A stretch of 64,000 bases of DNA. It comes from Thauera aromatica K172. Its GTDB lineage: Bacteria; Pseudomonadota; Gammaproteobacteria; Burkholderiales; Rhodocyclaceae. The DNA is taken from positions 806,001-870,000 of the forward strand of contig NZ_CP028339.1 of the NCBI RefSeq assembly GCF_003030465.1, in the 5' to 3' direction. Shown in pieces: positions 45,607 through 52,031 of this stretch (position 1 is its first letter; every line of letters begins with the position of its first letter). The position numbers and the translations under genes were made by a program. The notes under the pieces are model-generated. The model was not told where the DNA came from, ran no database searches, and saw only the letters and a program-made list of their open reading frames with translations.

Positions 45607-45635
45607 TTGAACCCTGGAGTTCTCGGGCGTATAGT
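45607..45635 (+). promoter_or_regulatory. Predicted sigma70 promoter of gltB
   Basis: TTGAAC (45607-45612) and TATAGT (45630-45635) are separated by exactly 17 bases, the best sigma70 match in the window. Transcription would start near 45642, giving a leader of about 230 bases before gltB that holds an NtrC-like palindrome and an intrinsic terminator. Confidence 0.7.
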
Positions 45636-45726
45636 TTTTTTGTCAACAGCGAGGCTGGTGGCGGTGTCCAAAATGGTGCATGCGGAGCTTCCGCTCCTGC
45701 GGTCCTGGTCATCAAACAGTTGTTTT

Positions 45727-45743
45727 TGCACCAGTCTGGTGCA
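45727..45743. promoter_or_regulatory. Perfect NtrC-type binding palindrome
   Basis: TGCACC-AGTCT-GGTGCA matches the NtrC consensus (TGCACC-N5-GGTGCA) in all twelve arm positions. A second half site GGTGCA lies at 45675-45680. Both are downstream of the predicted sigma70 start, so NtrC, if it binds, would more likely repress or modulate than activate that promoter. The palindrome can also fold as a hairpin in the RNA. Confidence 0.6.
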
Positions 45744-45749
45744 AATCAC

Positions 45750-45779
45750 AAAGCCGGTGCGCGCGCGCCCGGCTTTTTT
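45750..45779 (+). terminator. Intrinsic terminator inside the gltB leader
   Basis: AAAGCCGG (45750-45757) pairs with CCGGCTTT (45769-45776) around an 11-base GC-alternating loop, followed by a T run to 45779. It lies 90 bases before the gltB start and about 110-140 bases after the predicted transcription start. It could be an attenuator of gltBD or the end of a short RNA. Confidence 0.65.
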
Positions 45780-45869
45780 GTGCGCGTTCGGTTTATCAGG
45801 CCTTCCGGTTTGAAAGGCCTTTGTCGGCCCCCATGCGCGTGATCTTGCGTGTCGTTTGAGGAATAGAAG

Positions 45870-52031
<6,162 letters not shown>

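What the first reader, a model, noticed from the sequence alone, without database searches (positions are those of the whole stretch)
45607..45869. gltB leader with promoter, perfect NtrC palindrome and intrinsic terminator before the gene
The 360-base gap before gltB holds a near-consensus sigma70 promoter (TTGAAC, 17 bases, TATAGT), a GGAGC/GCTCC hairpin near 45684, a perfect NtrC site at 45727-45743 that lies downstream of the predicted start and can itself fold as an RNA hairpin, and then a terminator with a T run at 45750-45779, still 90 bases before the ATG. Transcripts would mostly stop unless antiterminated, so this is either an attenuator controlling ammonium assimilation or a short nitrogen-related RNA of about 140 bases. 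NtrC sites are usually upstream activator sites, so the downstream position is unusual. No sigma54 -24/-12 element was found nearby.
Basis: partly seen in the sequence, partly recalled or inferred. Interest (0 to 1): 0.75.

Follow-up and report, generated by a model that had tools for sequence, protein, structure and literature searches.

The report
Conserved terminator leader before glutamate synthase
In most of the close relatives compared, the gene for the ammonia-assimilating enzyme glutamate synthase is preceded by a promoter that runs straight into a transcription stop signal, and in this genus a binding site for the nitrogen regulator NtrC sits just before that stop, which suggests a nitrogen-tuned brake whose working has not been tested.

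Summary
Promoter, NtrC palindrome and terminator are where stated. The palindrome is the only zero-mismatch match to my NtrC consensus in the 3.71 Mb genome. Promoter-then-terminator is conserved: 92 of 99 distinct gltB upstreams of the Rhodocyclales-like set, 0 of 297 shuffles, 1 of 65 other gltB upstreams of the order. Ten Dechloromonas-type loci keep it without a dgt hit upstream, so it belongs to gltB. All 27 Thauera leaders keep the NtrC site 46-47 bp before the T run, while promoter-to-site distance varies from 59 to 91. No sigma54 site lies within 260 bases of gltB in those 27, but 15 of 21 Azoarcus-like leaders have a sigma54-like element just after the terminator. The GGAGC hairpin is not conserved. 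No general antiterminator was found (a test of low power), and leader RNA length and sequence differ between genera, so neither a classical attenuator nor a conserved trans-acting sRNA is favoured. A covarying hairpin lies between terminator and ribosome site. Best reading: a sigma70 promoter throttled by a promoter-proximal terminator, with NtrC inside the leader tuning flow, probably as a roadblock. The mechanism is inferred.

The parts
45607..45635 (+). sigma70-type promoter TTGAAC-17-TATAGT of the gltB leader, followed by a T tract (45636-45641); predicted start about 45642
   Evidence: promoter in 99/99 distinct leaders of the Rhodocyclales-like set (pattern written after seeing them); -35 0.92 and -10 0.97 identity across 25 other Thauera leaders
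45664..45680 (.). NtrC site B: weak half-palindrome GTGTCCAAAATGGTGCA, 63 bp upstream of site A
   Evidence: 61-63 bp from site A in 19 of 27 Thauera leaders, absent in the 8 with a short leader
45684..45697 (+).
   Evidence: 0.31 identity across 25 other Thauera leaders
45727..45743 (.). NtrC site A: perfect palindrome TGCACCAGTCTGGTGCA inside the transcribed leader (about +85 to +101)
   Evidence: only 0-mismatch site in the genome; in 27/27 Thauera leaders, 46-47 bp before the T run
45750..45779 (+). intrinsic terminator T1 (stem GCCGG/CCGGC, T6)
   Evidence: terminator alone 93/99, promoter-then-terminator 92/99 against 0/297 shuffles; stem-loop 0.97 and T run 1.00 identity in Thauera
45780..45792 (+). 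nearly invariant block GTGCGCGTTCGGT just after the T run; function unknown
   Evidence: 0.98 identity across 25 other Thauera leaders
45796..45820 (+). HP2, a fast-evolving hairpin in the gltB 5' UTR kept as structure
   Evidence: z below 0 in 26/27 with dinucleotide shuffles, mean -1.16; covariation in 9 related leaders, the window's own not among them
45836..45869 (+). conserved pre-start segment with Shine-Dalgarno GAGGAA (45858-45863)
   Evidence: 0.90 identity in Thauera
45870..50567 (+). gltB, glutamate synthase large subunit (1565 aa)
   Evidence: ORF; name recalled from its sequence; relatives of its first 300 residues in named Thauera, Azoarcus, Aromatoleum and Zoogloea genomes
50568..52031 (+). 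gltD, small subunit, next in the operon
   Evidence: ORF; name recalled from its sequence, not searched

Best explanation
This is the regulated 5' leader of gltBD. Shown by sequence and comparison: gltB has its own sigma70-type promoter, and a conserved intrinsic terminator lies between that promoter and the gene; in Thauera a strong NtrC site, mostly with a weaker one 61-63 bp upstream, lies inside the transcribed leader at a fixed distance from the terminator. Inferred: most RNA polymerases started at about 45642 stop at 45779, so gltB is fed by the read-through fraction, which also shields gltB from transcription arriving from aroB-dgt. Phosphorylated NtrC bound at +85 to +101 under nitrogen limitation stands in the path of the polymerase and lowers the flow into gltB (roadblock or operator), instead of activating a sigma54 promoter. 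The control of termination itself, if any, is by a factor acting on the conserved terminator or the polymerase and not by a competing RNA stem.
For: Promoter-then-terminator 92/99 against 0/297 shuffles and 1/65 in the other gltB upstreams of the order; terminator alone 93/99 against 11/65. Ten of 10 Dechloromonas/Azonexus-type loci checked have an aroB hit but no dgt hit in the roughly 3 kb held upstream, and none of the ten is among the seven that fail the promoter-then-terminator test. No promoter-like site between terminator and ATG here; no sigma54 site within 260 bases of gltB in 27/27 Thauera. The NtrC site is the best in the genome; the same search finds ntrBC and a glnK-type locus, the latter with a sigma54 site 124 bp downstream, so motif and scan work here (names recalled). 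The ntrC beside that ntrB carries GAFTGA, so it is of the sigma54 type, and yet no sigma54 promoter accompanies this site. Two sites a constant 61-63 bp apart, about six helical turns, in 19/27. No general antiterminator (88 leaders, mean z -0.07; 83 after removing mis-picked hairpins, -0.08). HP2 covaries, so the stretch after the terminator behaves as RNA.
Against: No expression data. Nothing shows that NtrC binds or which way it acts. Glutamate synthase is needed under nitrogen limitation, and sister genera have a sigma54-like element at gltB, which suggests activation instead of repression. The constancy of the NtrC-terminator spacing, and not of the promoter-NtrC spacing, fits an action on termination better than a plain roadblock. 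The antiterminator test has little power (shuffled leaders already pair the arm with mean probability 0.63) and is positive in the Aromatoleum-like group (7 leaders, mean z 1.29). Three Thauera leaders (L016, L024, L025) have a sigma54-like site scoring 12-13 at 300 bases before gltB. Two same-family genomes (L142, L143) fail the test, though by eye L142 has a TTGAAG-17-TAACAT promoter and a hairpin with T runs. A weak promoter downstream of the terminator cannot be excluded without a measured 5' end.
Confidence: 0.42

Rival explanations
1. NtrC bound to DNA just behind the polymerase at the terminator changes the efficiency of intrinsic termination (for example by blocking backtracking), so that read-through into gltB rises under nitrogen limitation: a DNA-bound antiterminator.
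For: Site-to-T-run distance 46-47 bp in 27/27 while promoter-to-site distance varies 59-91; terminator loop and post-T block nearly invariant, beyond what a terminator needs; expected direction (gltB up when nitrogen is short) agrees with the sigma54-like element of sister genera.
Against: All within one genus, so the short block may be fixed by descent. No precedent known to me for NtrC. By recalled polymerase dimensions about 20 bp would separate NtrC from the rear of the polymerase at the release point.
Confidence: 0.15
2. T1 is mainly an insulator that ends aroKB-dgt transcripts, and gltB is transcribed from an unrecognised promoter downstream of it (in sister genera the sigma54-like one); the upstream promoter then makes only a by-product RNA.
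For: 15 of 21 Azoarcus-like leaders have a sigma54-like site between terminator and gene. No T-rich terminator seen between dgt and the promoter by inspection.
Against: The promoter is kept in 99/99 and lies before the terminator; no promoter-like site downstream in the window and no sigma54 site near gltB in 27 Thauera leaders.
Confidence: 0.15
3. The leader makes a short regulatory RNA (about 137 nt) acting in trans.
For: Promoter and terminator in all 27 Thauera leaders; the predicted RNA folds better than shuffles (z -2.36), as do Thauera leaders before the terminator in general (mean z -2.51, n 27, against -0.19 in 58 others), much of it probably from the NtrC palindrome.
Against: Between promoter and terminator identity is 0.3-0.5 in Thauera outside the NtrC sites; predicted RNA length 39-138 nt across genera; no Rfam match.
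Confidence: 0.08
4. Classical RNA attenuator with mutually exclusive antiterminator and terminator stems.
For: A conserved leader terminator; in 7 Aromatoleum-like leaders the terminator's 5' arm pairs upstream better than in shuffles (mean z 1.29; 6 of the 7 at 1.1 to 1.9; closely related sequences).
Against: Across 83-88 leaders the mean z is about zero, in Thauera -0.23; several genera have only 7-28 nt between start and hairpin. The test has low power in GC-rich RNA.
Confidence: 0.07
5. NtrC sites A and B are a normal enhancer for a degenerate sigma54 promoter near the gltB start.
For: A TTGC lies at 45845-45848 in the window; spacing of about 100 bp from site A would be normal.
Against: The -24 GG is missing and the TTGC is lost in L006, L008, L014 and L016 among others; no site within 260 bases of gltB scores 10 or more in 27/27.
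Confidence: 0.07

Closest known systems
rimP-leader type attenuator (Naville and Gautheret 2010, PMC2965389; passages read)
   Same: A premature intrinsic terminator in an mRNA leader, with high conservation of the terminator stem and no visible antiterminator, for which those authors propose a termination or antitermination protein.
   Different: Different gene (gltB and glutamate synthase do not occur in that paper's main text) and lineage; the Thauera version also has an NtrC site in the leader.
NtrC control of gltBD (Leyn et al. 2016, PMC5343134; passages read)
   Different: The passages seen do not describe a leader terminator or a site downstream of a sigma70 promoter; Thauera and Rhodocyclales are not named in the main text. 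Supplementary tables were not read.
NtrC acting at sigma70 promoters in Rhodobacter and Caulobacter (PMC10274813; passages read)
   Same: NtrC working without sigma54, including as a repressor.
   Different: Those NtrC proteins lack GAFTGA; the one here has it.
NtrC-sigma54 enhancer promoter, as at this genome's own glnK-type locus
   Same: Same palindromic NtrC site.
   Different: There the sigma54 site lies 124 bp downstream; at gltB in Thauera none is found downstream of the site.

Membership tests
Promoter-proximal terminator leader without antiterminator (rimP-leader kind) | intrinsic terminator between promoter and gene, conserved across related genomes | tested here: met
   92/99 distinct leaders, 0/297 shuffles
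Promoter-proximal terminator leader without antiterminator (rimP-leader kind) | no competing antiterminator stem | tested here: inconclusive
   mean z -0.07 in 88 leaders, -0.08 in 83 after correction, but +1.29 in 7 Aromatoleum-like leaders and low power
Promoter-proximal terminator leader without antiterminator (rimP-leader kind) | termination measurably regulated | not testable with these tools
   needs RNA 3'-end mapping under two nitrogen regimes
Classical RNA attenuator | conserved alternative stem that excludes the terminator | tested here: not met
   for the whole set and for Thauera (mean z -0.23, 27 leaders); same low power
NtrC-sigma54 enhancer-dependent promoter | NtrC palindrome | tested here: met
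   consensus recalled
NtrC-sigma54 enhancer-dependent promoter | sigma54 -24/-12 element between site and gene | tested here: not met
   0 of 27 Thauera leaders reach score 10 within 260 bases of gltB; weights recalled
Conserved trans-acting sRNA | conserved RNA length and sequence | tested here: not met
   Zoogloea leaders are conserved within that genus
Known Rfam leader or riboswitch | match to a curated family | tested here: not met
   no gathering-score match in the window; with relaxed thresholds none in the leaders of 9 relatives and one chance-level match here
H-type pseudoknot (terminator loop with post-T block) | complementarity kept across lineages | tested here: not met
   mean z -2.02 in 27 Thauera (nearly invariant, so close to one observation) but -0.02 in 62 others

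The most novel reading that the evidence does not exclude
In Thauera a DNA-bound enhancer protein (NtrC~P), sitting at a fixed distance behind an intrinsic terminator, switches termination on or off: a transcription factor used as a termination regulator, in place of the sigma54-like promoter that many relatives have just after the same terminator.
Probability: 0.12. Interest if true: 0.75.

Novelty: new variant of a known kind. Interest (0 to 1): 0.47.

Why it matters
Glutamate synthase is the point where ammonia nitrogen enters metabolism. A terminator kept in front of it across most examined members of a group that includes denitrifiers, floc formers and nitrogen fixers (recalled), with no general RNA switch found to open it, points to a control of ammonia assimilation that I did not see described in the listings. 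The arrangements (NtrC before the terminator in Thauera, sigma54-like site after it in many Azoarcus-like leaders, neither in Zoogloea) are a natural series for testing how regulatory input is rewired around a constant promoter-terminator core.

Tried and rejected
Antiterminator search: no general signal, positive only in an Aromatoleum-like group. Conserved 5' hairpin in non-Thauera leaders ('TCCGCC..TTCGTA'): suggestive by eye but weak folds, not pursued. Pseudoknot between terminator loop and post-T block: not supported outside Thauera. Long-range stem GUGCGCG with the pre-SD CGCGUG in Thauera: almost invariant, so no covariation to judge. Rfam: a 13-bit ar35 match (gathering 45, E 3.7) is chance or terminator likeness. 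Terminator element elsewhere in the genome: one copy only, with up to 3 mismatches. Degenerate sigma54 site at 45834-45849: rejected. Leader peptide: ORFs cross the leader; no conserved small ORF seen by eye, not tested further. Literature: nine searches ran; no paper on a gltB leader terminator seen in the listings; passages of three papers read; the library lacks most subscription journals.

How the sets were made: one search keeps the best 80 of at least 583 relatives. One search gave loci for 26 of 29 genus genomes; the three without a match were not examined. Of the 183 order genomes with a match I examined 69 besides the window's own, mostly those with the nearest GltB. L115, L116, L141 and L144, from that order search, were moved into the Rhodocyclales-like set after I saw their leaders; two other same-family genomes, L142 and L143, stayed among the 65 'other' and fail the test. 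The promoter pattern was fitted to the leaders by eye. In the 65, promoter 11, terminator 11, both 1; their shuffles 1 of 195. L051's terminator may be the palindrome hairpin with its T run. L044, titled Thauera sp., has the Azoarcus-like arrangement, groups with Pseudothauera at a poorly supported fork and was counted with the 21, not the 27.

Full report
What is there. The window lies in a Thauera genome by comparison: same-genus genomes share contigs of identical length with named Thauera records. The gene order is aroK-aroB-dgt-gltB-gltD on the + strand (names recalled from the sequences).

Is it more than chance? I located the gltB start in the 80 loci kept (of at least 583 relatives), in 26 of 29 genomes of the genus and in 69 genomes of the order (183 of 200 had a match). 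One detection rule was applied to all. In the Rhodocyclales-like set (loci, the genus, and four order loci that looked alike) 99 of 99 distinct upstream regions have the promoter, 93 a terminator and 92 the promoter followed by a terminator; of 297 shuffles 3 had the promoter, 28 a terminator and none both in order. In the other 65 upstream regions of the order 11 have the promoter, 11 a terminator and 1 both. The promoter pattern was fitted to these leaders, so the terminator figures are the fairer ones. The seven that fail are L052, L054, L070, L089, L097, L115 and L144; L054, L089, L115 and L144 look like weaker versions by eye. Of five same-family genomes outside the genus (L115, L141, L142, L143, L144) only L141 passes; by eye L142 also has a promoter (TTGAAG-17-TAACAT) and a hairpin with T runs.

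Whose terminator is it? In the Dechloromonas/Azonexus group 10 of 10 loci checked have an aroB hit but no dgt hit in the DNA held upstream, and all ten pass the promoter-then-terminator test. So the element belongs to gltB.

The NtrC site. With the consensus TGCACYANNNTRGTGCA (recalled) the gltB site is the only zero-mismatch match in the genome; three places have one mismatch. One is in ntrBC and one precedes a PII-like gene, with a sigma54 site 124 bp downstream (names recalled from the translated sequences). The NtrC encoded there has the GAFTGA loop. All 27 Thauera leaders examined carry the site, 46-47 bp before the T run; the distance from the -10 element is 89-91 in 19 and 59-69 in 8. 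The 19 long leaders also carry a weaker half-site 61-63 bp upstream. No sigma54 site reaches score 10 within 260 bases of gltB in any of the 27; three (L016, L024, L025) have one at 300 bases, upstream of the promoter. The sigma54 weights are recalled, not fetched.

The relatives. In 15 of 21 Azoarcus-like leaders (Azoarcus, Aromatoleum, Pseudothauera and kin) a sigma54-like TGGTGC-N5-TTGC element lies 81-110 bases before gltB, downstream of the terminator; in 12 of 21 an NtrC-like palindrome overlaps it. With letters shuffled the rates are 0.018 and 0.007 per sequence. In three Accumulibacter-type loci (L088, L102, L105) the NtrC-like site is upstream of the promoter. In 12 Zoogloea leaders neither is found. 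In a GltB tree of 56 rows the 11 Thauera rows used form one group (support 88/95 with L026, 97/82 without), and leaders with the sigma54-like site fall in at least two other parts, one of them poorly supported. So the promoter-terminator core looks old and the nitrogen input seems to have moved around it.

RNA structure. Over all leaders the terminator's 5' arm pairs with upstream RNA no better than with shuffled leaders (88 leaders, mean z -0.07; 83 after correcting mis-picked hairpins, -0.08; Thauera -0.23). The test is weak because shuffled leaders already pair the arm with mean probability 0.63, and seven Aromatoleum-like leaders score +1.29 on average, so an antiterminator there is possible. 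In some genera the hairpin begins 7-28 nt after the predicted start, leaving little room for a sensor. Within Thauera the terminator loop and 13 bases after the T run are almost invariant (0.97-0.98), whereas the rest between promoter and terminator is 0.3-0.5 identical, except site A at 0.83 and weak site B at 0.67. I could not explain this extra conservation: a pseudoknot of loop with post-T block is not supported elsewhere. Between terminator and Shine-Dalgarno a hairpin (HP2) changes fast in sequence but tends to be kept: mean z -1.66 with single-letter shuffles, 27 of 27 negative; -1.16 with dinucleotide shuffles, 26 of 27 negative; the whole stretch from terminator to ribosome site is only at -0.61. 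In nine leaders that align without gaps 90.7% of cells pair (at most 53.7% when slid), 3 of 6 pairs have changes on both sides (69 of 500 shuffles reach that), and no shuffle of 500 reaches the covariation score. That segment therefore probably acts as RNA. Several Thauera have a T run after this hairpin, which would make a second terminator.

Interpretation. The simplest account is a sigma70 promoter whose output is throttled by a promoter-proximal terminator, with the read-through fraction making GltBD; in Thauera NtrC binds inside that leader. A protein bound 85-101 bases downstream of a sigma70 start is most easily read as a roadblock, which would make NtrC lower gltB when nitrogen is short. 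The opposite sign is possible: the fixed distance to the terminator, and the sigma54-like element in relatives, would fit NtrC helping polymerase past the terminator. Sequence cannot decide between them.

Known or new. Leyn et al. (PMC5343134, passages) already list gltBD among NtrC targets in some betaproteobacteria. Naville and Gautheret (PMC2965389, passages) describe a leader terminator without a visible antiterminator at rimP, the nearest kind; gltB does not occur in that text. I did not see a gltB leader terminator in the listings. I rate it a new variant of a known kind.

Noticed in passing
L052, 268-287 bases before gltB (Gammaproteobacteria-titled MAG): Two NtrC-like sites 19 bp apart upstream of the sigma70 promoter, in a leader in which no terminator was found.
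   Followed up: no
L045 (record titled Solirubrobacteraceae) and L073 (titled Accumulibacter): L045's gltB groups with Thauera, and L073's leader elements match those of Zoogloea locus L071: probably contaminating contigs in those metagenome bins.
   Followed up: partly
45635-45641: Thauera leaders have a run of 5-8 T from the last base of the -10 element, reaching the predicted start region, unlike the other genera seen; possible effect on start-site choice or slippage.
   Followed up: no
45780-45792: Thirteen nearly invariant bases after the terminator's T run (GTGCGCGTTCGGT) in Thauera, without an explanation.
   Followed up: partly
Zoogloea leaders L065-L082 and L101, from the -10 element to the terminator: The Zoogloea leader is almost invariant between promoter and terminator while the promoter spacer varies, which suggests a bound factor or structured RNA not shared with Thauera.
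   Followed up: no
Aromatoleum-like leaders L050, L053, L055, L057, L060, L062, L072: The terminator's 5' arm pairs upstream better than in shuffles (mean z 1.29): a possible local antiterminator in this group.
   Followed up: partly
G000:C1:536584 and 536975: Two NtrC-like sites 391 bp apart in ntrBC itself, perhaps autoregulation.
   Followed up: no
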